Positions 12,344-40,979 of a stretch of 40,979 nucleotides of DNA are shown here, one piece after another (the stretch's first letter is position 1; every line of letters starts with the position of its first letter). The position numbers and the translations under genes are program-made. Source of the stretch: a virus. The DNA lies in IMG/VR virus record IMGVR_UViG_3300047446_000092, positions 1 through 40,979 of that record; one strand, given 5' to 3'. The notes beneath the pieces were generated by a model, which saw nothing but the letters and a program-made list of their open reading frames with translations, was not told the origin of the DNA and made no database searches.

Positions 12344-14863
12344 CTAGGCGGTGACGGGCTGCTCGCCAGAATGGTCCTTCATCGTACTCGACGAGTTCCC
12401 CGCTCCCACAAGAATGAGGTTCTTGTACTCGACGGATTGCCCGCCCATCGGAGTGTGTTCGATCGTAAGTTTGAATCCGAACTCGGTAGCCAATTCCCTC
12501 ATCTTTGCTCTGAACTGAGTCGATCCAACAGGCCGAGCAGACCCCGGCCCGACGCAGAAGGACCAATATGCCTGATAGAGCTTCGTTTCCGTGACGGACG
12601 TGGGGGTCGAAGTCTTCGACCCAGCGGACACCGCTTCTTGGAGAGCGTGAATCCGCACCTTCCCGCTCTCCATGAGAAAAAAACGTACGCTGTTGTTCAG
12701 GTTCGCTACCTCACGCATGATTTGCGTGTGTGATGAAGGAATCGTGAACTCGTTGACCATCTTCAGTCGTGACATCGACTGCACCGCCCACGCAACGATG
12801 GCCTCGCGCTCCTCAACCACGATCGCGTCACCGAGATCCAGGCGTCGCTCGGATGCCTTCACCGGACGATTGAACTGGAACACGAGCCAGCGACGATTGA
12901 AACCCTCGGACGTGTCTTCCGTTCGGGGGTAGTGATTCGATGCGAACCAGTGCGTGCAGATAGGGTTGAAGCGGAAAATCTGACCCCCCTTGAGCTGGCC
13001 AGACATCTCAGCCCCATCAATGATGTCCTTGAACTTCTGACCATCGACGGTCTTCTTCTCGGACAGCTCACCAGCCACGTTGATGATCTTTTCAAACATC
13101 TGCGTGGGCAAAAACTTGTCGCTCCACTCGTTTGGAGGGACCGCCGAACGGGCTGAGTCTGGTACAAGAGCCTGAGCAATCTTCAAAAGCTGTGATTTAC
13201 CAGACTTTGGGGCACCTTGGAGCAAAACAGCACGTTGATAACGCGGTCCAAGACCGAAAAGCGTGACTGCCAATGCTTCCTGAATAGCATCGACCTTTTG
13301 GAGATAATCGTCGTCTTCACCCCAGCTTTTGTGAAGAAAGTCGAAAAACATGGACGATTTACCCGCTGCTTCCGGCAAATAACGGAACGGAAGCGTGTAT
13401 GTCATGCCATAACCGAGGTTATGCGGCATCAATTTGAGGTCTTCCGTGAGAAAACCATTGGCGAAGTTGACGCCCTTGATGTCCATCGTCTTGATACCCT
13501 GGGCCATGAGCATTTTCATGACCTGAAACACGCCCCGGATGTCGTTGAACTTCTTGCATGCCGCTAGATGGCCATAGTCCGAGCTGATCTTGGACATGAT
13601 GTACGTCTCGTCCACCTTCTCCCAGTGCGAGCCCGCCCACTTCCAGACGAAGCCGTTATGCGAGCGCACCTGGAACAGCTGCTCCAGATCCTTGATCACT
13701 GCGCGCGCGACCTCCGACTGGTCCTGGCCCTTGATGTCCCCCATGCGCAGCTCTTTGATGCGCGCTTTCAAACTCGAGACTTTGACTCCGAGGCCAGAGG
13801 TCATCGCGATGAACTCAAGCAGGCGATCCTCTTCGAGCTTATTCAGCCCACTGGTCGTGGCCACCTTCTGCAATGCCTTGTCGACCGACCCAGCACGACC
13901 TGGTGACTCCTTCGGAAAACGCTCAAACTCGTCGATCAGGAACTGCTTCAGGTCGTCGAACGTCCACTCTTCCTGCTCCTTCGTGATCTCAAGCCCCCAC
14001 GACTCCTTCTCTTCCGGGGACATGCCCTCGTCCCAGCCGGTCGGCAGTACCTTCTGCTTCTCGAACACGTCGCGTTGCAGGAACTTGATCATGTTGCGGA
14101 CGTGCTTGTCCACGTCGATCGGGTCGCCCGCCACGTTCTCGACGAAGTCGGCCGCGTACGCCTGAAGCATGCCGATGGCTTCCTTCAGGCTGCGGTCACC
14201 GCGGATCACCGCGTACGCGAAGAGGCCTGCGCGCTCGGTCAGCGACGTGTCGCGGGAGCCTGCCGACGCGTAGTCGATCACTCGTGTCCAACCGGAGTGC
14301 GACAGCTCGACGCCGGCCTCAGTGAGCGCGGCGCGCAGCAGCGTCTCGATGCTCTCGTCGAGCGGCACCAGATTCTTGTGAACGTCCACGAGGTCGCAGT
14401 TCGCCTGGTACGGCTGCTGGGTATCCGGGTGGATCGACGGAGGCAGCACCGACTGCGTGCGCGCGGACAGCATTTCACAGATCGTCTCGCCGCTCGTGTT
14501 CTTAATCCGGAAAGTCTTCAGGCCAGAGTAGCGGTAGGCGAGCATGACGCCCTTCTTGCCGATACGGCGCCACGGCGTCGGCGGCAACAGCTGCTCGATT
14601 ACGTTCATCAACCGGACATCTTCCGTGTCGATGTCCATCATGACGATGCCCGACTGCGGTCCGAGCACGATACCGATGTTCGAGTCGCGACACTGCTCGA
14701 TCCAGCTGGCCTGCTGCTCAGGTTCCACCGGGTGATCGAAGTAACGCGACCAGTCATTCGGGATCGGCTTCTTCTCGCGCGGATAGAGCGGGATGACCGG
14801 CAAGCCAGCGGCGTAGTAGCGCGGCGCGGTCTGGGCGAAGATTGGTTGACGTTCGGTCTTCAT
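12344..14863 (-). CDS. Bifunctional primase-polymerase / SF3 helicase
   Basis: 839 aa. Residues ~10-180 match the Prim-Pol (AEP-type) domain of phage and plasmid primases: an N-terminal GLPVIPLYPREKKP motif and the catalytic DxD in MMDIDTED (Asp77, Asp79). After a helical linker with a D5_N-like region (~430-520), the C-terminal helicase has a Walker A GAPKSGKS (Lys556), an AGELSEKK acidic segment (Walker B-like) and the SF3 arginine-finger region (GFNRRWLVF). It would synthesise primers and unwind DNA at the phage origin. Translation is coupled to the gene upstream by ATGA; GAAGAG is the SD. It ends at the bidirectional terminator. Confidence 0.9.
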   Translation of the reverse strand: MKTERQPIFAQTAPRYYAAGLPVIPLYPREKKPIPNDWSRYFDHPVEPEQQASWIEQCRDSNIGIVLGPQSGIVMMDIDTEDVRLMNVIEQLLPPTPWRRIGKKGVMLAYRYSGLKTFRIKNTSGETICEMLSARTQSVLPPSIHPDTQQPYQANCDLVDVHKNLVPLDESIETLLRAALTEAGVELSHSGWTRVIDYASAGSRDTSLTERAGLFAYAVIRGDRSLKEAIGMLQAYAADFVENVAGDPIDVDKHVRNMIKFLQRDVFEKQKVLPTGWDEGMSPEEKESWGLEITKEQEEWTFDDLKQFLIDEFERFPKESPGRAGSVDKALQKVATTSGLNKLEEDRLLEFIAMTSGLGVKVSSLKARIKELRMGDIKGQDQSEVARAVIKDLEQLFQVRSHNGFVWKWAGSHWEKVDETYIMSKISSDYGHLAACKKFNDIRGVFQVMKMLMAQGIKTMDIKGVNFANGFLTEDLKLMPHNLGYGMTYTLPFRYLPEAAGKSSMFFDFLHKSWGEDDDYLQKVDAIQEALAVTLFGLGPRYQRAVLLQGAPKSGKSQLLKIAQALVPDSARSAVPPNEWSDKFLPTQMFEKIINVAGELSEKKTVDGQKFKDIIDGAEMSGQLKGGQIFRFNPICTHWFASNHYPRTEDTSEGFNRRWLVFQFNRPVKASERRLDLGDAIVVEEREAIVAWAVQSMSRLKMVNEFTIPSSHTQIMREVANLNNSVRFFLMESGKVRIHALQEAVSAGSKTSTPTSVTETKLYQAYWSFCVGPGSARPVGSTQFRAKMRELATEFGFKLTIEHTPMGGQSVEYKNLILVGAGNSSSTMKDHSGEQPVTA

Positions 14864-26698: not shown

Positions 26699-29600
26699 AT
26701 GGCCAATCAAGAGCAGGTAAAGAACTTTGAAGTGGGTCTCGGCCTCACTGAAGACACCCTTCGTCAGTATTCGCAGCTGAAGGATGTCCTTGGTGTCATC
26801 TATGGTCAGCTGACCAAGGTGAAGCAGGCTGCTGCCGAGATCCAGATCAGCGGCGTCGGCGCACGCGGACCCAATGACCCTGCTCTTTCCCAGCAGCTCG
26901 CTGCCCTGCAGGCCGAGCTGCGCACCCTCCTTGGCTCCATCCGCTCCGGTGGCCCGAACGCTCAGCTGAACTCAGCCATCATCTCTGGCCAGCAGCAGCA
27001 GAAGCAGTTCTCAGACGGTCGCCTCGACCTCGAATCGGCTCGCGTCGCAAACGCGCAAGCTGAGCGTCGCGTGATGCTCGCCAAGCAGGAAAACATCGCT
27101 GCTGAAGCGAAACGCCAATACAACGCCGAAGAGATCGGCATGACGCGCGAGATCGAGCAGGCAACGCTGCGCGTTGCTGCCGCGCAGCGCGCGCTCACGC
27201 AAGCCAGGCTCGAGGAGGACACCATCGCGGAAGGCGCGTCCAAGCGCGCTATCCGCGATTCGCAACAGCGTCTGCAACAGATCCGTGAGGAGCTGGAGCT
27301 GCGTGAGCGCGGCGCCCGCGTGCGCCTTGGCAACTCCCTCGACAGTGGCAGTGACGCATCGAGCGCGCAGGCCCAGCTCAAGGCCGTGCAGGAAGCGCGC
27401 GCCTCGCTCTCGGACTCCATCCGCAACGCAGCCGGTGCGATCCGTACAGCCGAAAACGAAGCGAACCGCGCTACCGCCCAGAAGGCCGCGCCGGTCAGCA
27501 CCGCGCATTCCGCCGCGCTCCGTGAGGACCGCACTCGGGACTATCAGGCCCAGCTCAGCGAAGCCGATGTCGGCCCACCCGTTGATCTCTACTACAAGGA
27601 GCTTCAGCGTCAGGCGCGCGCACGCGAGGCTGCGGCTGAGAAGGCGCAGGCTGAAGAGCGCGCCGCGTTCGAACGTATCCAGAGCCAGATCCGGCCGGCA
27701 CAGGTCGAAGACCGTCGCCGTCAGCAGGAGGCTGAAGAGCTGGCCGCGCAGATCGGCCCGCCTGTTGACCTCTTCTACAAGGAACTTCAACGCCGCTCGC
27801 GTGAGCTGACCGCTGCTGCCCAAAAGGCCAAGCAGCTGGAGCAGGCCGAGTTCAACCGGCAACAGAGCCAGATCCGTCCCGCGCAGCTGGAAGACCGTAA
27901 GCGTCAGGATCAAGCCGAGCAGATGGCCGCTCAGATCGGCCCGCCTGTCGAGCTGTTTTATGCCGAGCTTCAGAAGCGCGTGAAGGAGCTGGAAGCTGCT
28001 CGCGTGAAGGCTGAGCAGGAGATGCAGAAGCAGCAGGAGGCGTTCAACAAGGCCGGTGCGAAGTACGGGCCTGACCGCAACCAGCTCCTGAAACTGCGCG
28101 ACGCGCAGATGGCCAAGGAGCAGCAACAGCAGGAGTCGAACTCCGACATCCGCCAGCGCCGACACGACCTGACGCTCGGCGACGGCGGCGCTTCGATCGC
28201 CATGACGCAGGCCGCGCTGACCACGAACTACTTCGTGACGCAGGGCATCGTGCAGGCGTTCAAGTCGGCCATCCAGTTCACGGTCGAATACGAGGAAGCT
28301 CTCGCCCACCTGAAGACGATCGCTGGTGCGACCGAAGGCCAGCTCGGGGATCTGCGCGCCACGGTCGAAGGTGTGTCGAACGTGACGCGTTACGGCGCGG
28401 TGGATCTGACGAAAGCCGCAGCGGCCCTGTCGGAAACAGGCGTCACGGTGAGCCAGATGGGTGTCGCCCTCAAGGGCGTCGCCGACCTGGCCACGGCCAC
28501 GGGCGAAGACTTCAACAAGACGGTAGACACCGTCACGGGCGCGCTCGGCGCGTTCAAGCTGTCGGCTACCGACACGGTCGACATCACGAACATGATCGCC
28601 CAGGCGGTCAACTCGTCGCGCCTGACGATGGACAAGCTGAAAACGTCCATCGAAACGGCTGGGGAAACCGCAAGCGAAGCCGGCGTCTCGTTCAAGGAAA
28701 TGCTGGCCGCGAACGTGGCCATCACGAACACTGGCACGGCCTCGGGCGCGACGCTCGGGGGCGGGCTGCGCTCGCTCCTGACGGACCTTGAAAAACCGAG
28801 CGACAAGTTCAAGGCCACGCTCGAACGCGTCGGCCTGACCGAAGACGACATCAACGTCAAGACGCAAGGCCTGTATGGCGCGATGTCCAACCTGCACGAC
28901 GCCGGCTTCGATGCTGCTGACGCGATGCAGTCGTTCGATGCGCGCGCCGCGTCGGCGTTCACTGCCCTCTCGGGCAACCTGAAGGCCTTCGCGGAGTTCG
29001 AGACGGGCCTGAACTCGACGGACGCTGCGGCGCGCGCCAACGCCGACCAGATGAAGACGCTGGGGGCGCAGTACGACCGCTTCAAGAACCAGACCAGCCT
29101 GCTGGTCGGTGAAGGCTTTAAGCCCCTGCTGGACGGCTTCAAAAGCGTCGTGTCGCTTACGGCGGATGCCGAAACCAGCATCCGCAGCATGAGCTTTGCA
29201 GTAGAAGCGGCCGGCACGGTCCTGGGAGGCGCTACGATCGCCCTGGGCGCCCAGTACGTAGGCAAGCTCGGGGGCGGGCTTATCGGCCTCGCCACGGGCG
29301 GTTTCGCGGCTGCTGAGGGCATGGCTGCTATCGGGGCTTCGCTCGGCCTCTGGGTCGGGGTCGCGGCGGCTGCTGCGGCTGGTGTAGCGTTCCTGATCAA
29401 CCGGCTCGGAGATTCGAAGAAGGCCTTCGAAGACCAGATGACCGCCGTCAACACGGCCAAGGACACGCTCACCGAGTCGAAGCAAGCCTACGACAGCATC
29501 GGTACGACGATTGAAACGCTCACGGACAAGATGGATGCGCTCAACAAGCATCCGGAGATGCTGAAGCGCGAGATCGATGATGTGGGTAAGCAATTTGAGA

Positions 29601-32600
29601 AGTACGGCGAGCAGCTGGACAAGAGCGCGATCCAGAAGACCGAAGACCTGATCACGGTCCTCAAGAAGCTGCACGACCAGCTCGGCCAGAAGTACGAGCT
29701 GAGCACGGTCATGCTCGGCCAGCAGCTCGACCTGATGACGGTGCAGGCCCAGCAAAAGGTGCAGGAGACGAACTCGCAGTTCGGGCGCAACGCCTTCAAC
29801 GGCGCAACCGACAAGGTCGACCGCGTGCGTCCTGCGAGAAGCACGGAATACGTGGAAGGCACGGTCGGTGGCCTGGCAGGAGACGACTCGACGTACAGCC
29901 TCCTACCCAATGGCAAGCAGTCCAAGGGCTTCGCGGATCTCGGCACAGGCCTGAACAGCGCCAACCTGGCGCCGTTCGTCCAGCTGCTCGGGGACGTAGG
30001 CGTCAAGGAACTCGACAAGGTCACGGCGGGCTTCAAGGCAGCGCTCGATCCGAACGCAACGGCAGACGTAGGCAACGACCCGGAGAAAGCACAGGCATAC
30101 CTGAACCTGCTGGGCCAGGCCAATACCGGCCTGACCGCCGCACAGATCAAGCTCGGGCAGCAGCGCAACGCAGTCGGCACGGACGACGCGACCAAGGCGC
30201 GCATCGACGCACTGGTACAGATCTTCGGCAACGCAGCAGAACAGCTGAAGAAGTCTGTCGAGGCGGGGCAAACCCTGGCTGGAAACCTCAGCCAGAAGGC
30301 AGTCACGTCTGCGGATGTTGCAAACATCCAGTATGAGAACAACAACCCTGGCGCCGTCGCACGTCGCACCGAGATCGAGAAGATCATCCAGCGCTCGGTC
30401 GGGTTGCGCACGGCTGGTTTCAGTAGCAACCGGGACATCGACGATATCTGGGCCGCGCAGATCCAGGCGGAGAGCCGGGGCAAACAGTTCGACGCCAACG
30501 GCAGGACACTGACCTCCAGCAAGGGCGCGATGGGCGTCGCTCAAGTCCGTCTTTCGACCGGGCCTGAAGCTGCACGTCTGGCGGGTGAGGACTGGAACGA
30601 GAACAAGTTCCGAAACGATGCAGCCTACAACGAGAAGCTGGGCAAGGCCTACATGTCGCACATGCTCGACCTGTATGGCGGAAACAACACGCTCGCACTG
30701 GCGGGTTACAACTGGGGTCAGGGCAACGTCAACAATCTGCTCAAGCAGAAGAACCCCGATAAAACGACGAACGACTTCCGCGTCCTGTCGAACAACCTGA
30801 CCGAATCCGACTTCATCGACAAACTGCCTCCTGAGACTCAGCGCTACATCGCGCGTATCGGCGGAAGCGGTGCAGGTAACGTAGGCCGTTTCGAGCGACT
30901 GAACAGCAACATCGGCGTTGCGTCGCAAGTGCGTGACCTGAACGACCTGGTCCAGAGCCTGACCGCACAACGCGACGCGAACAAGGGCAACGCTCCGGAA
31001 GTCGCATCGATCGAGAAGCAGATCGTCGCTGCCAAGACGGAGCTGGCAGCATGGGAAAAGAAGTTCGACGACGCTCGCGTTTCCGCCGCACCGGCTCTGA
31101 AGAAAGCGTCCTCAGCCGACGAGGCTGCGCTGAACGCTCGGGTCAAGGCGCTTGACGCCCAAGCCGGCAACTCGCGCAACATCGACGAAGTACAGGAGAT
31201 CGGCAAGCAGGCCGATGACACGATCGCGGCAGTGTATGGACGCAAGATCGACACGCTTCGCGCGATCAGCCCGAAGGTCAAGACGGCAGATGGCACGCTC
31301 GACTACACGTCTGAAGTGCGTCAGCAGATCGAATCGCTCCAAAACGAGCGTGACGAAAAGCTGAAGGCGCAGGACGAGGCGATCAAGAAGCACATCACGT
31401 CGATCAAGGATGCGCTGGACAAGGCCGAGCTGAAGAAGAACCTCGAAGCCGAAGCTCAGACGTTCAAGGACGAGATGTCGGACCTGAAGCAGCGTCAAGC
31501 TACGGAGTCTACGGCACACAGCATCTCTCTGAAGCAGGCTGCACAGCCCCTGAAGAACGACCAGTCGCAAGCCTCGTATATGTCGGATCCGCGCTATTCC
31601 GCGCGCTTCAGCCAGGTACAACGCACTGCCCTGTCGTTCCAGACGGCTGCTGATAGCGATCTGAAGGATCAAGCCACGCTGGCCGAGGACCGTCGCCACC
31701 AACTGCAACTACAAGCTGAGGAAGAACAGGCAAAGGCTGCGTTCTCGCGCACTGGTTCCAAGTTGACGGATCGGCAGGACGCGCTGGCTCAGTCGAGCGA
31801 CGACAAGGAGCAGGCGCGGGTTCAGCAGCAGATCAACCAGCTGCTCGACGAACAACGCACTCAGGAAGAGAAGGTCACGGCAGCATCCGACAAGCGCAAG
31901 AAGAACGCCGAAGACATCCTGGAGCTGGAAGAGAAGATCAAGTCCAAGAACGCCGCCCCGATGGGGCTGATGGACGGCATCAACGCAGCGAACGCGAACT
32001 TCCTGCAACAGCACGACCTGATGGCCAACGCGATCGACGGCTACAACAGCCTGCTCGGCTCGGCGACGAACTCGTTCGCGCAGTTCTTCGACGACATCGT
32101 AACCGGCTCGAAGTCCGCAGGTCAGGCGATCGGCGACTTCGCACGGTCGTTCCTGAAGGCGATGTTGCAGATCCTCGAACAACAGGCCGCGCTCGCCACG
32201 GTGAAGGCGATCATCTCCGCGTTCGGCGGCGCCTTCGGGCCGTCAGCCACCCCCGCAGCTGGCTCTGGCTCGGCCCCGGTGGCAACCGGGGGCTTCGACT
32301 CAGCCGGCACGGCCTTCGCTATTCAGGGCGGCTCGGTCGGTAACGGCATCGTGACGCGCGGCGGGGGCTTCACCCGCTTCGCGGGCGGCGGCTCGGTCAA
32401 CGGCTCGATGACGACCCGTGACTCGGTCAACGCCCTGCTGAAACCCGGTGAGTACGTGCTGAACTCGGATGCAACCGACATGGTTGGTACGGACTTCCTC
32501 GACGGCCTCAACTCGAAGGGCAACCGGATGATCTCGAAGAGCACCCCGGCTCCGCTGCCGAAGCGCGACACAAAGCCCTCCTTCACGAACGTCTGGGTCG

Positions 32601-32719
32601 TGGCACCGGACCAGAAGCCGCAGATGGGGCCGAGCGACGTGGTCGCCATCATGAGCGACGACATCATGCGCGGCGGCACCACGAAGCAACTGATCAAGCA
32701 AGTAGCGATGGGACAATAA
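26699..32719 (+). CDS. Tape measure protein with lytic transglycosylase domain
   Basis: 2006 aa. It follows the chaperone stop by two bases and sets tail length. Residues ~1-500 are coiled coil. A 61-residue unit starts at 291, 352 and 413 (each opens with VGPPV/IGPPV-DLFY-KELQ) with an exact 183-bp period. Residues ~505-720 match the phage tail tape-measure core (EALAHLKTIAGATEGQLGDL, SETGVTVSQMGVALKGVAD). A hydrophobic patch (~840-900) could cross the membrane. Residues ~1245-1365 are an SLT-type transglycosylase: catalytic Glu1258 (QAESRG), GAMGVAQV, ALAGYNWG. The C-terminus is coiled coil plus a Gly/Ser tail. It would cross the periplasm at infection. A long tail (~300 nm, scaling from lambda) is predicted. 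Confidence 0.92.
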   Translation: MANQEQVKNFEVGLGLTEDTLRQYSQLKDVLGVIYGQLTKVKQAAAEIQISGVGARGPNDPALSQQLAALQAELRTLLGSIRSGGPNAQLNSAIISGQQQQKQFSDGRLDLESARVANAQAERRVMLAKQENIAAEAKRQYNAEEIGMTREIEQATLRVAAAQRALTQARLEEDTIAEGASKRAIRDSQQRLQQIREELELRERGARVRLGNSLDSGSDASSAQAQLKAVQEARASLSDSIRNAAGAIRTAENEANRATAQKAAPVSTAHSAALREDRTRDYQAQLSEADVGPPVDLYYKELQRQARAREAAAEKAQAEERAAFERIQSQIRPAQVEDRRRQQEAEELAAQIGPPVDLFYKELQRRSRELTAAAQKAKQLEQAEFNRQQSQIRPAQLEDRKRQDQAEQMAAQIGPPVELFYAELQKRVKELEAARVKAEQEMQKQQEAFNKAGAKYGPDRNQLLKLRDAQMAKEQQQQESNSDIRQRRHDLTLGDGGASIAMTQAALTTNYFVTQGIVQAFKSAIQFTVEYEEALAHLKTIAGATEGQLGDLRATVEGVSNVTRYGAVDLTKAAAALSETGVTVSQMGVALKGVADLATATGEDFNKTVDTVTGALGAFKLSATDTVDITNMIAQAVNSSRLTMDKLKTSIETAGETASEAGVSFKEMLAANVAITNTGTASGATLGGGLRSLLTDLEKPSDKFKATLERVGLTEDDINVKTQGLYGAMSNLHDAGFDAADAMQSFDARAASAFTALSGNLKAFAEFETGLNSTDAAARANADQMKTLGAQYDRFKNQTSLLVGEGFKPLLDGFKSVVSLTADAETSIRSMSFAVEAAGTVLGGATIALGAQYVGKLGGGLIGLATGGFAAAEGMAAIGASLGLWVGVAAAAAAGVAFLINRLGDSKKAFEDQMTAVNTAKDTLTESKQAYDSIGTTIETLTDKMDALNKHPEMLKREIDDVGKQFEKYGEQLDKSAIQKTEDLITVLKKLHDQLGQKYELSTVMLGQQLDLMTVQAQQKVQETNSQFGRNAFNGATDKVDRVRPARSTEYVEGTVGGLAGDDSTYSLLPNGKQSKGFADLGTGLNSANLAPFVQLLGDVGVKELDKVTAGFKAALDPNATADVGNDPEKAQAYLNLLGQANTGLTAAQIKLGQQRNAVGTDDATKARIDALVQIFGNAAEQLKKSVEAGQTLAGNLSQKAVTSADVANIQYENNNPGAVARRTEIEKIIQRSVGLRTAGFSSNRDIDDIWAAQIQAESRGKQFDANGRTLTSSKGAMGVAQVRLSTGPEAARLAGEDWNENKFRNDAAYNEKLGKAYMSHMLDLYGGNNTLALAGYNWGQGNVNNLLKQKNPDKTTNDFRVLSNNLTESDFIDKLPPETQRYIARIGGSGAGNVGRFERLNSNIGVASQVRDLNDLVQSLTAQRDANKGNAPEVASIEKQIVAAKTELAAWEKKFDDARVSAAPALKKASSADEAALNARVKALDAQAGNSRNIDEVQEIGKQADDTIAAVYGRKIDTLRAISPKVKTADGTLDYTSEVRQQIESLQNERDEKLKAQDEAIKKHITSIKDALDKAELKKNLEAEAQTFKDEMSDLKQRQATESTAHSISLKQAAQPLKNDQSQASYMSDPRYSARFSQVQRTALSFQTAADSDLKDQATLAEDRRHQLQLQAEEEQAKAAFSRTGSKLTDRQDALAQSSDDKEQARVQQQINQLLDEQRTQEEKVTAASDKRKKNAEDILELEEKIKSKNAAPMGLMDGINAANANFLQQHDLMANAIDGYNSLLGSATNSFAQFFDDIVTGSKSAGQAIGDFARSFLKAMLQILEQQAALATVKAIISAFGGAFGPSATPAAGSGSAPVATGGFDSAGTAFAIQGGSVGNGIVTRGGGFTRFAGGGSVNGSMTTRDSVNALLKPGEYVLNSDATDMVGTDFLDGLNSKGNRMISKSTPAPLPKRDTKPSFTNVWVVAPDQKPQMGPSDVVAIMSDDIMRGGTTKQLIKQVAMGQ
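27569..28080 (+). repeat. Three 183-bp (61-residue) repeats in the tape measure
   Basis: Units begin at 27569, 27752 and 27935, in register at both DNA and protein level (GPPV(D/E)L(Y/F)Y(K/A)ELQ). The third copy is diverged after ~30 residues. The first two are the most similar. Confidence 0.85.
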
Positions 32720-34430: not shown

Positions 34431-35025
34431 GCCGATCCGCGTCCATGCCACAACGGTCGCGGAGGCGCTGACGTACCTGAAGCAACTCCCAGGCTTCGAC
34501 GTGGAAAATCCCGTGCCGATCAAGGTCAAGGGGTTTGAATGCCGGGACGCGATCTTCGCCGCGACCGACGAGACAGAACTGCACATCTACCCCGCGCTCT
34601 CCGGCGCGGGCGGTAACGGGGGCATGCTCCAAACGATCATCGGCGCGGTCATTTTCGTCGTGGGTATCGTCGTGGGCGTGCTGACCTCGTGGACCGGCGT
34701 TGGTGGCGCAGCCGGCTTCAGCATGGCGATGTCTGGCGCAATGATGATGCTCGGTGGCATTCTCGCCATGCTTGCGCCGACACCCAAGGCCGGCAACGCC
34801 GGCAGTCAGTCGCTGTATATCCCGTCGAACCAGAACACCACAAAGATCGGCACCCGAATACCGCTGCTGTATGGTCGCATCCGCCACTTTGGCCACTACC
34901 TGTCGTTCAACGTTGACGCGCGCAAGCTAGACGACAGCAAGATGAACCTCGCCGGCTACTGCTCCGGCAAGACCGACTCGAATGGCGTCCGCTACTCCTA
35001 CGGCACAACCTGCCTGATCGCCTGA
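34384..35025 (+). CDS. Tail assembly protein, gpI-like (213 aa)
   Basis: MKTIYLHGSLTERHPE; an N-terminal ubiquitin/beta-grasp-like domain (~1-80: PIRVHATTVAEALTYLKQL). Two hydrophobic helices (~86-110, IIGAVIFVVGIVVGVL, and ~118-138), as in lambda I. A C-terminal segment (YIPSNQNTTKIGTRIPLLYGRIR) follows. In lambda I is needed for tail tip assembly but is not found in the virion. Overlaps JAB by 47 bases and J by one base (TGATG). Confidence 0.85.
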   Translation: MKTIYLHGSLTERHPEPIRVHATTVAEALTYLKQLPGFDVENPVPIKVKGFECRDAIFAATDETELHIYPALSGAGGNGGMLQTIIGAVIFVVGIVVGVLTSWTGVGGAAGFSMAMSGAMMMLGGILAMLAPTPKAGNAGSQSLYIPSNQNTTKIGTRIPLLYGRIRHFGHYLSFNVDARKLDDSKMNLAGYCSGKTDSNGVRYSYGTTCLIA

Positions 35026-38000
35026 TGAAACTTGACAAGGACACCCAAGGCCTGCGCGGCGCGGGCGGCGGCTCAAGCGGCCCGCACCGCACCGACGACA
35101 ACCTCTTCTCGCGAGACGTGGTCGAGATGGTGCTCGCGCTCGGCGAAGGTCCGATCCGCGGCCTCACGAACGGCATGAAGTCGTTTTATGTAGGAGGCAC
35201 GCCGCTTCAATCCGAAGACGGCTCGGTCAACTTCGAGTCGTTCAACCTCGGGGTCATGCGCGGCCACGTTGGTGACCCGCCTGTCAACTACCAGCTCGGC
35301 GGCGAAACCTCGAACACCGCCGTTGGCGTGCGACTGTTCCAGGGCACTTGGGTCACGCGCCAGACCGACAGCTCACTGGTCAATGTCGTCGACCAGCTCC
35401 AGGTGCGGATCCAGTTCTCCCAGCTGTACGTGCAGAACAACGATGGCTCGTACAACAACACGGCGCAGTTCGACATCCAGTATCGGCAGTCGTCGAGCAA
35501 CGGGGCGTGGGCCGCGTACAGCGGAAACACCGTATCCGTTGAGGGCAAGACCTCGGCAGGCTACGTGGTCGACTACTGCTGGGATGTACCGCGCGTCAAC
35601 GACACCTGGGACATCCGCGTCCGCAAGCTCAATCCGGATAGCTCGAACACCGACTTCTGTGACTTGAGCTGGGAAAGTTTCCAGATGGTCACGAAGGGCA
35701 ACCGGACGTACGACCGCGTCGCCCTCATGCACCTGGTCGCCCTGGCCACGAGTCAGTTCACGTCGATCCCGGACTTCGGCGTGGACGTGGACGGCCTTGA
35801 GATCCTGATCCCGACGAACTACAACGGTGACACCCATACCTACGACCTGTCGGTCCCGACCTGGGATGGCTCGTTCAAGCAGGCATGGTGCAACAACCCG
35901 GCGTGGATTCTGTACGACCTTTTGATGAACCCAAGCTACGGCTTGAGGAAATACTACCCGTGGTTGACGTGCAACCGCTTCGACTTCTACGACGCGGCGC
36001 AGTGGTGTGACACACCTGTTCCTGACGGCAAAGGGGGCACGCAGCCTCGCTACACGTTCAACATGGCGATCAAGGACCAGCAGTCCGGTCTCGACATGCT
36101 GCAATACGTGGCAGGCTCCTTCGGCGCGGTGATCTTCGATGACGCCACGGGCAGCGTCCATCTTCGCGTGGATAAGTGGGAAGAGCCGCAGCTGCTCTTC
36201 AGTCCCGAGAACGTGACGCCGGATGGCTTCACGTACACGTACACGGACATGACAACCCGGTACAACGATCTCGAAGTCAACTTCGTGAACCCGGATCTCG
36301 ACTGGCAGAAGGATATGCGGCCGGCTCAAGATCCGGACCACATCGCACTCAACGGGCACATCCCCTCAACGTTCGAAGCGATCGGCTGCACCGACGAGCA
36401 TGAAGCGCTCCGACGCGCGTACTACCGCCTGATCACGGCAACGACCGAGTGCGCAACCGTGAGCTTCATCGTAGCGCGCCTCGGAGCTATCGTAGATCCG
36501 TACAGGCCGATCTACGTCGCGGACCCGACATCCGGCTTCTCGATGCCCGGTCGAGTCAAGTCGATCTTCAATGGTGTGATCTTCCTCCGTGATCCGATTT
36601 ACTTCACGAACGTCCAGAACTACACGCTGAAGCTGCAAACTCGTATTGGCCTAGTTCCTCTCGTGGTTCGTCCAGCAGCTATCGGCGCGATCTATGAGTT
36701 GACGATCGTCTCAGGCATCGTGCCGCCGAACGCTGTCCCCGACCGCACGGTCTTTACCATTGAGGACAACGGCAGCTTTGGCATCGCGAAACCGTTCCGG
36801 GCAGTCGCTGTCGAGCCGGTAGACAACAACCCGAACTCGTTCAAGATCACAGCGATCGAGATCAACGTCAACAAACAGTGGGCGGCGGATAACTGCGTGC
36901 CGATCGGCAGCGTCCCCTACTCGTTCAAGAACCCGTTGATTCCCCCACCGCCGACGAAGATGGTGCTGGCCTCTGGCACCAACGAGATGATCATCGGTCA
37001 GGACGGGTCGATCATGGCTCGGATCTTCGCATCCTGGGACGCACCGGGCAGCGCGCTGATCGACCACTACGATGTGGCGTGGAAGCCGTCGAACCAGTCA
37101 ACCTGGACCTACACGACCAGCTCGGGCGAGAGCATCTTCCTCGCGCCGTGTGTCACGCGTCAGCTCTACGACATCACAGTCTGGGCTGTGAATGCCTTTG
37201 GCAACCGCAGCGCGCAGCTGTCGGTGTGGGGTTATAAGTGCGTCGGCAAGGATGACCCCCCCAGCAACGTCGAGAACTTCACGATCCAGCGACGACAGAA
37301 CGACGTTCTGCTGAAGTGGGATGCAATCAAGGATCTGGACCGCGCCGGTTATGAGATCCGCCTCGGCACGAGCTGGGATACCGCGACCGTCCTGGTGACC
37401 GACTACCAGGCGACGCAGTTCGCATGGACGACCGACACGGGCGGCGTCTACACGTTCCTGATCCGCGCGATCGACAGCAGCGGCAACCAGTCACAGCTGG
37501 CCACCAAGCAGCAGATCAACCTGCAAGGCCCATCACCTGTGAAGGGCGTCATCGCCATCCAGTCGGGCAACCGCATCGAGTTCCGCTGGACGCCGAACCC
37601 CGAAAACAACATCCTCCAGTACGAGATCCGGGAGGGCGACACTTGGGCCACGGCGGTGTTCGTTGCCCAGACGAAGGCGACCACATTCGGCCTCACAGCT
37701 GGCGCGGCCGGCACGCGCAAGTTCTGGATCAAGGCAATCGGCTCACCGGGCATCTACTCGGATAAGGCGACGTTCGTCACGACCGATGTCGCGCAGAGCG
37801 ACAGCACGAACATCATCTACACGAGCGACGAGCTGGCCAACGGCTTCCAGGGCACGCGCTACAACATGATCCCGTACGGCAACACGCTGCGGATGGATGA
37901 CGGAAAGGCGAAGGCCGAATACATCTTCAGCGTGAACCTGCCGACCGACTTCCGCGCGCAGAACACGCTGTTCGTCGGCCTCGACGCGATCGTGGACTTC

Positions 38001-38627
38001 TCAACCAAGTGGTCTGAAGGCACGTACGCGTGGAACGACCCGAAAGCGCAAGCACCGTGGGCCGCACAGGGCGACATCTCGTCGATCAACTACCTGGCCG
38101 AGATCTCGATGCTGCGCACGCTGAGCACCGACCTGCTCTACGCGTGGAAGCTCGACAACGACCTGACCTACGCCGGCCCCGGCGAGGACGGCGAAGTCAT
38201 GGAGCAGCAGAACGTCAGCTACAAACCTGGCAAGTTCGGCTCGGGCCTGTTTGTCCAGACTCCCCCGCTTCAACCGACTCCGACGCGCGTCACGTTCAGC
38301 ACGAACATCCCGAACAACTTCAGCACGCGTCAGTGGATCGTGCCGATGGATTTGCTCGACGACACCTGGTTCAGCTGCTGTGGCCGCAATGGGCGCCAGA
38401 TCACTGTCGGCTACGAGGCATCGATCCAGAGCGTCTACGCGATCGATGATCAGGGCGCAAAGATCTCGATCCCCATCGGGCTTGAAGTCGGCGAGCGCTA
38501 CTTCATCGCACTGTCGCAGGACACGACCACGCGCACTCTGTTCGTCGGCAAGGAAGACGGCTCGACGTACAGCGGCATGATCAAGGTCGGCGGCATCGGC
38601 GCAACCATCAACTACGCACTCTACTGA
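35025..38627 (+). CDS. Tail tip / host-specificity protein, gpJ-like (1200 aa)
   Basis: MKLDKDTQGLRGAGGGSSG with the typical start LALGEGPIRGLTNGMKSFYVGG of lambda J. The N-terminal ~600 residues are the hub. Residues ~645-930 form three fibronectin type III-like repeats (WDAPGSALIDHYDVAW, LLKWDAIKDLDRAGYEIR, FRWTPNPENNILQYEIREG). From ~1035 there is a LamG/concanavalin-like domain (LLYAWKLDNDLT, KPGKFGSGLFV). The J protein forms the tail tip and contacts the host receptor; the LamG-like C-terminus differs from lambda J and is the likely receptor or glycan-binding module. Confidence 0.88.
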   Translation: MKLDKDTQGLRGAGGGSSGPHRTDDNLFSRDVVEMVLALGEGPIRGLTNGMKSFYVGGTPLQSEDGSVNFESFNLGVMRGHVGDPPVNYQLGGETSNTAVGVRLFQGTWVTRQTDSSLVNVVDQLQVRIQFSQLYVQNNDGSYNNTAQFDIQYRQSSSNGAWAAYSGNTVSVEGKTSAGYVVDYCWDVPRVNDTWDIRVRKLNPDSSNTDFCDLSWESFQMVTKGNRTYDRVALMHLVALATSQFTSIPDFGVDVDGLEILIPTNYNGDTHTYDLSVPTWDGSFKQAWCNNPAWILYDLLMNPSYGLRKYYPWLTCNRFDFYDAAQWCDTPVPDGKGGTQPRYTFNMAIKDQQSGLDMLQYVAGSFGAVIFDDATGSVHLRVDKWEEPQLLFSPENVTPDGFTYTYTDMTTRYNDLEVNFVNPDLDWQKDMRPAQDPDHIALNGHIPSTFEAIGCTDEHEALRRAYYRLITATTECATVSFIVARLGAIVDPYRPIYVADPTSGFSMPGRVKSIFNGVIFLRDPIYFTNVQNYTLKLQTRIGLVPLVVRPAAIGAIYELTIVSGIVPPNAVPDRTVFTIEDNGSFGIAKPFRAVAVEPVDNNPNSFKITAIEINVNKQWAADNCVPIGSVPYSFKNPLIPPPPTKMVLASGTNEMIIGQDGSIMARIFASWDAPGSALIDHYDVAWKPSNQSTWTYTTSSGESIFLAPCVTRQLYDITVWAVNAFGNRSAQLSVWGYKCVGKDDPPSNVENFTIQRRQNDVLLKWDAIKDLDRAGYEIRLGTSWDTATVLVTDYQATQFAWTTDTGGVYTFLIRAIDSSGNQSQLATKQQINLQGPSPVKGVIAIQSGNRIEFRWTPNPENNILQYEIREGDTWATAVFVAQTKATTFGLTAGAAGTRKFWIKAIGSPGIYSDKATFVTTDVAQSDSTNIIYTSDELANGFQGTRYNMIPYGNTLRMDDGKAKAEYIFSVNLPTDFRAQNTLFVGLDAIVDFSTKWSEGTYAWNDPKAQAPWAAQGDISSINYLAEISMLRTLSTDLLYAWKLDNDLTYAGPGEDGEVMEQQNVSYKPGKFGSGLFVQTPPLQPTPTRVTFSTNIPNNFSTRQWIVPMDLLDDTWFSCCGRNGRQITVGYEASIQSVYAIDDQGAKISIPIGLEVGERYFIALSQDTTTRTLFVGKEDGSTYSGMIKVGGIGATINYALY

Positions 38628-38628
38628 C

Positions 38629-39090
38629 ATGGCACACGTAATCTCTGACATTGGCGTGTCGACCACGGTATTGAGCGCCGATGACTTCTACGACGAACTG
38701 ATGTCGGACGCCCCGATTGGCTACGCGCCTTTTCAACCGTTCGTGCAGGGGGACTATGACTATCAGTCGGCGTTGTTCCGGATCTCGATGCACTCGGAGA
38801 ACGGCGACCGGGGGGTCATCAACAAGCTGAACGTCACGGTGGACGTGCCCGACATGTTCGACCGTGGCGACCAGATCATCTCCGACACGACCGCGCCCAC
38901 GCGCATCCACTTCGCCCGGCCGTTCCACATTCCACCTGTCGTCGTGGTTGCGGTGCAGAGCGCGAGCGACCCCTGCGTGGCCAAGCTGTACGGCAGTCCC
39001 ACCCGTCAATACTTCGACATGATTCTTGAGCGCATATCCGACAAGGCGATCATCGACGGCGCAGCAACATGGGCAGCGCACGCCTACTGA
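38629..39090 (+). CDS. Tail-tip-associated protein, possible lectin-like (153 aa)
   Basis: MAHVISDIGVSTTVLSAD, one base after the J stop. A segment IHFARPFHIPPVVVVAVQSA resembles the H-type lectin pattern (F..PF..PP.V.V). A receptor-binding accessory is possible, with low certainty. No coiled coil or membrane segment. Confidence 0.6.
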   Translation: MAHVISDIGVSTTVLSADDFYDELMSDAPIGYAPFQPFVQGDYDYQSALFRISMHSENGDRGVINKLNVTVDVPDMFDRGDQIISDTTAPTRIHFARPFHIPPVVVVAVQSASDPCVAKLYGSPTRQYFDMILERISDKAIIDGAATWAAHAY

Positions 39091-39151: not shown

Positions 39152-40606
39152 ATGCAAGCATATCAACAGATACCAGACAGCCAGCGGATCTCCGATTCGC
39201 TCGCGCCGCTGCTGAACAACGACCTCACCGCGATCTCGCGCAACGCGGGTCAGGCCTACCCGACTGCCGGTCTCGTCGTCGGGATGCCCTTCTTCAACTC
39301 CACCGAGAAGAAGCTGTACCGGCTTGACAGCCTGTCGCCTATCACCTGGACGTTGGAGATCGACTTCAACCGCGCCTTCGCCTATGCGGACGATGTGGCC
39401 GCGGCGGTCGCCAACGCCAACGGGCGTGTGTCGAAGGCCGGCGACACGATGCTTGGCTACCTGACCCTGAACGGCGACCCGAACCAGGCGCTACACGCCG
39501 CGCCGAAGCGCTACGTGGATGCGCAGCGCGACGCCGCGATCGCGATCGCTAATCAGGCGGTGCAGCGCGGCGGTTCGACGATGATCGGCCCGCTGCTGCT
39601 GGCCAGCGACCCGACGCAGCCCGCGCAGGCCTCGACGAAGAACTACACCGACTACCTCTACAACGCGCTGAACAACGCGAAGCTGAACCGCAGCGGGGAC
39701 ACGCTCAACGAGGTCTATAACAACGGCTGGTATCGCTCCAACGGTGCAGTGGGCTGGTACAACCAGACGTTTGGCGGTGGCATCCATATGCAGGACGGCT
39801 CGTACGTGCGCGTCTACGGTGGCAAGGGCTTCCAGACCGACACGCACACGCTGGAGCAAGGCACGGGCGGTATCTGGACCGCACGCTACGGCTGGCTGGA
39901 GAATTACTTCGCGCGGGCGGATTCGAACGGCGCGCTGACCTCAGTCGGCACGGTGAACAGCAGCAACCTGCCGTATGTACAGGCCGACCAGTTCTACCTC
40001 CAGCAGAGCGGCCGGCAAGTGCAGCTCGTGCGCGTCTTCGCGAACTGCAACTGCAACTGCGCCTGCACATGCTTCCCCGCTGGCACGCGCATCCTGATGG
40101 CTGATCGCTCGTGGAAGAACGTCGAGGACATCCTCGTCGGCGACGTGCTCATGACGCCCCTCGGACCCGAAGTCGTGCTCGATGTCGAGACGCCGATCCT
40201 CGGCGACCGCCGCATGATCGGCTTCGACGACCTGTCGCTGTTGTGGACCGACGACCACGGCTTCTGGACGCGCCGCGACGGCAAGCAAGCCTTTGGCGTG
40301 TACGACAAGCAGTCGTGGCTGCGAGGCGTGGAGCTGGGCGTGGTCAAGGGTCTGCCGAACAACGATGATGTGCGGCTTCTGGACGACCGTCACGACGAGT
40401 TCGCACACATGGACGGCTGGGTTCAACGTAACACCGTGGTCGCGAGCAGCCGTCAGTTCCCGCCCGAGACGAAGGTCTATCTGCCGATCGTCGGCGGTTG
40501 CCACATGATCATCGCTGAGGGTTACGTGGTCTCTGCTGGCGCGAACGGCTTCGACTTCGACTACGACACATTCAACTGGGAAGGCCTGAAAGATGCTGCT
40601 GCATAA
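39152..40606 (+). CDS. Tail fibre with C-terminal Hint (hedgehog/intein) domain
   Basis: 484 aa. The N-terminal region attaches the fibre (MQAYQQIPDSQRISDS). Two phage-tail-repeat units (GDTMLGYLTLNGDPNQALHAAPKRYVD and GSTMIGPLLLASDPTQPAQASTKNY at ~98-160) are followed by a fibre section. Residues 298-307 are a Cys ladder (NCNCNCACTC). From Cys307 a Hint domain begins: CFPAGTRILMADRSW (nucleophile block), TDDH (366-369, block B) and HMIIAEGYVVSAG (~448). Hint domains cut or splice at the first Cys. There is no C-terminal extein and no terminal HN pair, so N-terminal cleavage or attachment is more likely than splicing. The stop overlaps the next gene. Confidence 0.85.
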   Translation: MQAYQQIPDSQRISDSLAPLLNNDLTAISRNAGQAYPTAGLVVGMPFFNSTEKKLYRLDSLSPITWTLEIDFNRAFAYADDVAAAVANANGRVSKAGDTMLGYLTLNGDPNQALHAAPKRYVDAQRDAAIAIANQAVQRGGSTMIGPLLLASDPTQPAQASTKNYTDYLYNALNNAKLNRSGDTLNEVYNNGWYRSNGAVGWYNQTFGGGIHMQDGSYVRVYGGKGFQTDTHTLEQGTGGIWTARYGWLENYFARADSNGALTSVGTVNSSNLPYVQADQFYLQQSGRQVQLVRVFANCNCNCACTCFPAGTRILMADRSWKNVEDILVGDVLMTPLGPEVVLDVETPILGDRRMIGFDDLSLLWTDDHGFWTRRDGKQAFGVYDKQSWLRGVELGVVKGLPNNDDVRLLDDRHDEFAHMDGWVQRNTVVASSRQFPPETKVYLPIVGGCHMIIAEGYVVSAGANGFDFDYDTFNWEGLKDAAA

Positions 40607-40979
40607 GTCCCTTATCCCGCTCGACCTGGACGAGAAACAGCTGGCCGCGATCGGCCCGATCGCTACGGTGATCGCGACGCCCACCGGCTTCGTAATCAGC
40701 TCCAAGGAGCGCTCGCTCTACTGGCAGTTCGATCTGACCAAGGTCGAGTTCGGCCTCGATGTCCTACACCTGGTGAAGAACCGGGCTGGTCAGTATGTGC
40801 CCGTCTGGGGAAGCGATCTGCACGAGTCGAAAGACAGCTGGTCAAGCTGCATGTTCCGCAAGAACATCGACTCGTTCCAACCGCTGTGCGTCATCGGGGT
40901 GTCAGCGGACAAGAAGAGCTTCACCGCAGTCTTCTTCATCAGCACGCAGGAGCCGAACAACCTGGACACTCAGGAAGAC
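40593..40979 (+). CDS. Hypothetical fibre-linked protein, 3' end outside window
   Basis: 129 codons present, open to the right edge. The ATG at 40593 overlaps the Hint-gene stop by 14 bases, with GAAGG eight bases upstream. Begins MLLHKSLIPLDLDEKQLAA; acidic, alpha/beta, with two isolated Cys. It may be a fibre assembly factor or partner of the Hint domain because of the tight coupling. No family recognised. Confidence 0.65.
   Translation, partial: MLLHKSLIPLDLDEKQLAAIGPIATVIATPTGFVISSKERSLYWQFDLTKVEFGLDVLHLVKNRAGQYVPVWGSDLHESKDSWSSCMFRKNIDSFQPLCVIGVSADKKSFTAVFFISTQEPNNLDTQED

What the first reader, a model, noticed from the sequence alone, without database searches (positions are those of the whole stretch)
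39152..40606. Tail fibre that ends in a Hint (hedgehog/intein) domain
CFPAGTRI at Cys307, TDDH and a C-terminal beta region complete a Hint fold of 178 residues at the end of a fibre. A fibre that cleaves itself could be activated late, attach a ligand to the new end, or release its own tip.
Basis: partly seen in the sequence, partly recalled or inferred. Interest (0 to 1): 0.7.

Follow-up and report, generated by a model that had tools for sequence, protein, structure and literature searches.

The report
Self-cleaving cap on cysteine-tailed phage fibre
This phage tail fibre ends in a self-cutting (Hint) domain placed directly behind a run of alternating cysteines that, across many uncultured phages, travels with a radical-SAM modifying enzyme, so the cap probably cuts itself off to bare a chemically modified fibre tip, which I have not found described before.

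Summary
ORF 39152-40606 (484 aa) is a tail fibre whose last 178 residues form a Hint domain: AlphaFold pLDDT about 90, best solved match Z 17.5 (BIL2), Hedgehog Z 13.3, Cys307 on intein residue 1, T366-D-D-H369 as block B, S461-A462 where inteins have His-Asn. It should cut only at its N-side. Residue -1 is Thr/Ser in 32 of 34 relatives, though the proteins in front of it are unrelated.

The four cysteines there are the only ones before the Hint. The 99%-identical contig that runs past the window end continues into a gene of unknown function and a radical SAM/SPASM enzyme. In IMG/VR this enzyme family and (N/D/A)-Cys repeat proteins occur together: a CNCNCNC pattern in frame goes with the enzyme in 37 of 49 records, out of frame in 0 of 31 (p 1e-12). 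Of 103 distinct repeat proteins, 71 end within 13 residues of the repeat; the other 32 carry a further domain: Hint, S74 autoprotease, or an unknown domain.

Best reading: a removable autoproteolytic cap on a fibre tip modified by a radical SAM maturase. Both chemistries are inferred.

The parts
39152..40606 (+). Tail fibre gene with C-terminal Hint domain (484 aa)
   Evidence: full-length relatives in Achromobacter phages 2-1 and JWF (51.5%, 49.9%)
40043..40069 (+). Alternating-cysteine repeat N298-C-N-C-N-C-A-C-T306, proposed mature C-terminus and radical SAM substrate; the four cysteines are the only ones in residues 1-306
   Evidence: conserved as NCNCNCACT / NCNCDCNCS in all relatives of this clade; linked to radical SAM enzyme
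40067..40072 (+). Proposed scissile bond Thr306|Cys307 (Cys307 = Hint residue 1)
   Evidence: T/S at -1 in 32 of 34 family members (C in 2); Cys307 aligns with intein residue 1
40070..40546 (+). Hint fold, residues 307-465
40247..40258 (+). Block B motif T366-D-D-H369 (TxxH)
   Evidence: His369 invariant in 29 sequences, T/S at the T position in all but one
40532..40537 (+). S461-A462 in place of the intein His-Asn: no C-side cleavage expected
40547..40603 (+). Short conserved tail after the Hint fold (GFDFDYDTFNWEGLKDAAA; the Tyr and Trp are conserved across the family)
40593..40979 (+). Next gene (cut by the window end), overlaps the fibre stop by 14 bases; unknown fold; lies between fibre and radical SAM gene in the relatives
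35025..38627 (+). TipJ/central fibre protein; marks the tail-tip operon

Best explanation
The gene makes a tail fibre with two C-terminal modules. (1) A tip of alternating cysteines (NCNCNCACT), the likely substrate of a phage-encoded radical SAM/SPASM maturase of the thioether-forming kind encoded just downstream. (2) A Hint domain that acts as a removable cap: Cys307 attacks the Thr306 carbonyl (N-S acyl shift helped by T366/H369) and the thioester is then hydrolysed or passed to a nucleophile, releasing the 178-residue cap. The mature fibre then ends in the cysteine repeat, as the repeat fibres of most other phages with this enzyme end by translation alone. Shown here: the Hint fold and its N-side active site, the repeat, the linkage of repeat and enzyme, and the interchangeability of 'ends at the repeat' and 'repeat + autoproteolytic cap'. 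Inferred: that cleavage happens, that the enzyme modifies the cysteines, and what the modified tip does (a hardened or metal-binding tip, or receptor contact).
For: Hint fold, Cys1 and TxxH. -1 residue T/S in 32/34 while -2 to -6 vary, also in members whose upstream protein is unrelated. Enzyme directly downstream in the 99%-identical contig (L005) and in every full-length relative whose flank is held. Linkage: of the 80 best enzyme loci, 66 have a Cys-repeat or NC-rich ORF (56 by a stricter rule) against 0 of 89 control loci without the enzyme (stricter rule); DNA pattern CNCNCNC in frame 37/49 records with the enzyme, out of frame 0/31, p 1e-12; all 120 pattern loci, deduplicated, 36/61 versus 0/47, p 1.5e-12. 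In this Hint family members with the repeat have the enzyme, and 11 records without the repeat have none; one record is an exception. Repeat position is bimodal: 71 of 103 end within 13 residues, 32 have more than 60 residues after it, none between. Peptidase_S74 follows the repeat in L128 with the S..K dyad spacing (MyRF paper PMC8326128). L099 holds a paralogue pair with and without a Hint. Hint presence changes about 8 times on the enzyme tree, at least 6 forced by supported branches. 109 of 109 distinct long enzymes keep CxxxCxxC and the SPASM pattern. Nearest solved/annotated relatives include PapB, geopeptide and SCIFF maturases, CteB and anSME.
Against: No biochemical evidence for cleavage or modification. 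The enzyme is outside the window (contig end), so its presence in this very phage rests on the 99%-identical contig and relatives. The family passes no NCBIfam equivalog cut-off (best 59-84 bits against cut-offs of about 340 or more), so its chemistry is not set by homology. About a third of the capped repeat proteins carry an 'SKIIC-x-KL' domain not known to be autoproteolytic. L168/L169 carry distant enzymes and a Hint without a repeat. Free alternating cysteines could bind metal without modification.
Confidence: 0.64

Rival explanations
1. Metal tip: the alternating cysteines of three fibre chains point to the trimer axis and bind iron or zinc (like the HxH sites of T4 gp37 or P2 gpV, from memory); the radical SAM enzyme has another role and the Hint only matures the end.
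For: Strict alternation CxCxC suits a strand in an intertwined trimer; inter-cysteine residues are small or polar (N 299, A 77, D 34).
Against: Does not explain the tight linkage to a SPASM radical SAM enzyme. Extended NC-rich proteins such as L085 or L115 do not look like simple trimer needles.
Confidence: 0.2
2. Hedgehog-like transfer: the Hint thioester is attacked by an outside nucleophile (lipid, sugar, lysine of another virion protein), so the fibre end becomes conjugated, not merely free.
For: N-side-only Hint architecture, as in Hedgehog and B-type BILs; T/S at -1.
Against: No sterol-recognition-like region; only about 20 residues follow the fold. S74, which hydrolyses, can take the same place, suggesting that removal is what matters.
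Confidence: 0.15
3. The Hint is a dead remnant or stable structural domain; the fibre stays uncut.
For: Scores below every Pfam gathering cut-off; no demonstrated activity.
Against: Cys1, His and the -1 Thr/Ser are conserved across members only 29-40% identical to the window; decay would lose them.
Confidence: 0.08
4. The Hint is a follower-type recognition domain for the radical SAM enzyme rather than a protease.
For: Lies next to the substrate repeat.
Against: Most repeat proteins have no Hint yet have the enzyme, and 10 viral contigs plus a Providencia phage have the Hint but neither repeat nor enzyme.
Confidence: 0.05

Closest known systems
Achromobacter phage JWF gp28 (AJD82922, 'Hom_end-associated Hint family protein') and phage 2-1 homologue
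   Same: Full-length homologues, 50-52% identity, same Cys repeat, same gene order with radical SAM enzyme
   Different: Annotated only by a Pfam name or as hypothetical; I found no text linking the repeat, the Hint and the enzyme in the two papers opened that discuss JWF
Hedgehog Hog / B-type bacterial intein-like (BIL) domains
   Same: Hint fold, Cys1, TxxH, N-side cleavage without C-terminal His-Asn
   Different: Sits on a virion fibre behind a Cys repeat; no sterol region; close relatives found only in viruses
[quoted passage not shown]
   Same: C-terminal autoproteolytic domain removed from a fibre; found at the same place after the repeat in L128
   Different: Unrelated fold and Ser-Lys mechanism; acts after trimerisation
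Radical SAM RiPP maturases (PapB ranthipeptides, CteB/SCIFF, geopeptide, anSME)
   Same: Radical SAM + SPASM enzyme next to a Cys-repeat substrate
   Different: Proposed substrate is a virion fibre, not a small peptide; substrate motif is every-second-cysteine; scores far below every equivalog cut-off

Membership tests
Hint superfamily | Horseshoe all-beta Hint fold | tested here: met
   (Z 17.5 to BIL2, 13.3 to Hedgehog)
Hint superfamily | Cys/Ser at position 1 and TxxH block | tested here: met
   Cys307, T366-D-D-H369; Cys1 and His invariant in 29 sequences
Intein / A-type BIL | C-terminal His-Asn (and, for inteins, a C-extein) | tested here: not met
   S461-A462 at that place; only about 20 residues follow
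Hedgehog Hog | Sterol-recognition region after the Hint | tested here: not met
   fold ends about residue 465 of 484
B-type BIL | Intein motifs except the C-terminal one; N-side cleavage | tested here: inconclusive
   motif pattern fits; no B-type BIL profile was compared and cleavage was not tested
Autocleaving domain | Actual self-cleavage at T306|C307 | not testable with these tools
   needs expression and mass spectrometry
Radical SAM/SPASM peptide maturase (neighbour gene in relatives) | CxxxCxxC and full SPASM cysteine pattern | tested here: met
   109 of 109 distinct long members
Named RiPP maturase families (PapB, SCIFF, nif11, anSME and others) | NCBIfam equivalog cut-off | tested here: not met
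   best 59-84 bits against cut-offs of about 340 or more
RiPP-like system | Genetic linkage of modifying enzyme and substrate motif | tested here: met
RiPP-like system | Post-translational modification of the motif | not testable with these tools
   no mass data

The most novel reading that the evidence does not exclude
A widespread, so far unnamed phage system in which a virus-encoded radical SAM/SPASM maturase modifies the alternating-cysteine C-terminal tip of tail fibres, RiPP chemistry on a virion protein, with interchangeable autoproteolytic caps (Hint or S74) that bare the tip.
Probability: 0.6. Interest if true: 0.9.

Novelty: new variant of a known kind. Interest (0 to 1): 0.78.

Why it matters
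If true, some tailed phages build fibre tips with radical chemistry seen until now in small modified peptides and a few enzymes, and use a Hedgehog-like self-cutting domain as a throw-away cap. That would add a new layer to how phages make host-binding or cell-piercing tips, give a function to a radical SAM family that PHROGs lists only as a 'radical SAM domain-containing protein' (phrog_1802), and offer enzymes acting on the C-terminus of large proteins. It is testable now in a cultured phage (JWF) and in E. coli.

Tried and rejected
Intein: rejected, no His-Asn and no C-extein. Ordinary fibre with a chance Hint-like motif: rejected by fold. Hint as follower peptide for the enzyme: rejected, both occur without each other. 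anSME-type formylglycine motif C-x-[P/A]-x-R around Cys307 (motif from memory): CFPAGT lacks the Arg. Function of the gene between fibre and enzyme: no Pfam or NCBIfam hit and no solved fold; one weak viral match to an uncharacterised podovirus protein. Cultured phages beyond JWF and 2-1 with the enzyme: none at E 1e-10 with a divergent query; with JWF itself three fecal contigs at about 23-27%; none in plasmids. Close cellular relatives of the Hint: none, best E 2e-14 at 31% identity. Literature on phage-tail radical SAM modification in the held library: none relevant.

Full report
What is there. The ORF at 39152-40606 encodes 484 residues. It follows a TipJ-like gene (35025-38627) and a small gene (38629-39090). 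Its first 300 residues look like a tail fibre (tail-fibre PHROG E 2e-7, Shufflon_N E 4e-6). From Cys307 to the end lie 178 residues with a weak Hint match in Pfam. With 29 related sequences AlphaFold folds this part at pLDDT about 90, while most of the fibre part is below 60. Foldseek and VIA-align place residues 302-465 on inteins, BIL domains and Hedgehog (best 6y75, Z 17.5, rmsd 2.2 A, 142 residues; Hedgehog 1at0 Z 13.3), with Cys307 on intein residue 1.

What kind of Hint. Cys307 and His369 are invariant in 29 aligned members; the block-B position T366 is Thr or Ser in all but one. Where inteins and A-type BILs end in His-Asn, this family has SA, GA, TA and the like, and in this protein only about 20 further residues. 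So it should do the first Hint step (N-S acyl shift at residue 1; see the Hedgehog review PMC9163320) but not C-side cleavage. An independent sign of a used scissile bond is the residue just before Cys1: Thr or Ser in 32 and Cys in 2 of 34 members, with positions -2 to -6 variable, and Thr/Ser in all 13 members whose upstream sequence has no alternating-cysteine repeat immediately before Cys1 (three further proteins with HN-K before the Cys were set aside as a different type).

The Hint is preceded by A-N-C-N-C-N-C-A-C-T. The fibre has only six cysteines: 299, 301, 303, 305, 307 and 450. Phages JWF, 2-1 and the viral contigs keep the repeat (NCNCDCNCS, NCNCNCACT; JWF one unit longer). In each of them whose flank is held, the fibre gene is followed by a gene of unknown fold and then a radical SAM/SPASM enzyme. 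The window stops inside the first of these; the contig that matches it at 99.0% over 8.8 kb (L005) continues into the enzyme. The enzyme is nearest to RiPP maturases that make thioethers (PapB, geopeptide, nif11, SCIFF/CteB 5wgg; the CteB and PapB chemistry is known work, PapB PMC9413430) and to anSME, but passes no equivalog cut-off. All 109 distinct long copies keep the radical SAM and SPASM cysteines.

Is the linkage real? Two opposite searches agree. From the enzyme side, 66 of the 80 best loci carry an NC-repeat or NC-rich ORF within the fetched stretch (56 by a stricter rule), and most of the rest are contigs cut within 2.4 kb upstream of the enzyme; by the stricter rule 0 of 89 control loci without the enzyme do. 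From the repeat side, the DNA pattern for CNCNCNC was scanned without regard to frame. Where it is encoded in frame, 33 of 49 loci have the enzyme in the fetched stretch and 37 of 49 when the whole record is searched; where it falls out of frame, 0 of 31 (Fisher p 1e-12). Using all 120 pattern loci, deduplicated, it is 36/61 against 0/47 (p 1.5e-12). Some of the in-frame cases without the enzyme are short chance ORFs or short contigs. Within this Hint family, members with the repeat have the enzyme and 11 records without the repeat have none; L168/L169 (distant enzymes, no repeat) is the one exception.

Where the repeat sits. Of 103 distinct repeat proteins near the enzyme, 71 end within 13 residues after the repeat (67 within 6), 32 have more than 60 residues after it, and none lies between. 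So the repeat is a C-terminal tip. What follows it in the other 32 is a Hint, a Peptidase_S74 domain (L128 and its near copy L133), or an 'SKIIC-x-KL' domain of unknown activity; one (L106) is undefined. S74/ICA cuts just before its Ser in trimeric fibres; in the homologue MyRF this is P586-S587 with the catalytic Lys at +5 (PMC8326128), and L128 has SDDTLK, with the same spacing, two residues after the repeat. L099 has a paralogue pair, one ending in the repeat and one with repeat-GGG-Hint. On the enzyme tree the Hint state changes about 8 times, at least 6 of them forced by supported branches (a quick tree with some long branches, and one Hint locus, L163, was scored as unknown). Autoproteolytic domains of unrelated fold thus come and go at the same place, where self-cutting would leave the repeat at the end.

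How it most likely works. Shown: fold, active-site residues, repeat, linkage, interchangeability. Inferred: (i) the Hint cuts at T306|C307 and leaves; (ii) the radical SAM enzyme modifies the cysteines, most likely to thioethers, since its nearest relatives do that and PapB tolerates many spacings (PMC9413430); (iii) the modified tip serves receptor contact or stability. Asn is the commonest residue between the cysteines (299) but Ala (77) and Asp (34) are common too, so a strict Cys-Asn cross-link is not implied. The Hint is not needed by the enzyme, nor the enzyme by the Hint, so these are two modules. A metal-binding tip remains the main rival.

What is known. JWF gp28 is already annotated as Hom_end-associated Hint, so 'a fibre with a Hint' exists in a database record. 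I found nothing in the held open-access library that connects phage fibres, cysteine repeats and radical SAM enzymes; subscription papers are mostly not held. Among annotated phages, strong matches to the enzyme are only JWF and 2-1; nearly all examples are uncultured viral contigs. I rate the Hint as a new variant (N-cleaving, viral) and the repeat-enzyme pairing as the surprising part. Classed strictly, it is RiPP-like chemistry proposed for a new kind of substrate.

Noticed in passing
L137: One 14 kb viral stretch carries two radical SAM enzymes of this family, each with its own Cys-repeat protein.
   Followed up: partly
L159, L161, L162, L164, L167, L170-L173, L175: The same Hint subfamily ends structural proteins without Cys repeat or radical SAM enzyme, several on very large contigs (190-285 kb), so the cap has a wider use.
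   Followed up: partly
L003 8001-8501 (Providencia phage PSTNGR1): A podovirus has a small tail-type protein ending in the same Hint type (31% identity), Ser at -1, no repeat, no radical SAM enzyme.
   Followed up: partly
L109, L115, L119, L142 and others: Repeat proteins followed by a conserved 'SKIIC-x-KL...ADQ.(F/Y)G' domain of about 170 residues; unknown whether it is autoproteolytic. No Pfam hit for L109.
   Followed up: no
L230, L236, L245: Short proteins ending in CNCNCNC next to several distant radical SAM enzymes (20-153 bits), perhaps a second, related system.
   Followed up: no
L168/L169: Hint-ended protein without the repeat, but the record has three distant radical SAM enzymes: exception to the rule.
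   Followed up: partly
L022 6353-6736: An aspartate decarboxylase gene (Pfam E 4e-25) lies between the Hint fibre and the radical SAM gene.
   Followed up: no
window 38629-39090: Small gene between TipJ and the fibre with a weak H-type lectin match (E 0.012, below cut-off).
   Followed up: no
window 12344-14863 (-): Prim-Pol primase/polymerase gene with DUF5906, opposite strand to the structural genes.
   Followed up: no
window 26699-32719: Tape measure protein of 2006 aa with an internal stretch (about 1249-1389) similar to a PHROG endolysin family.
   Followed up: no
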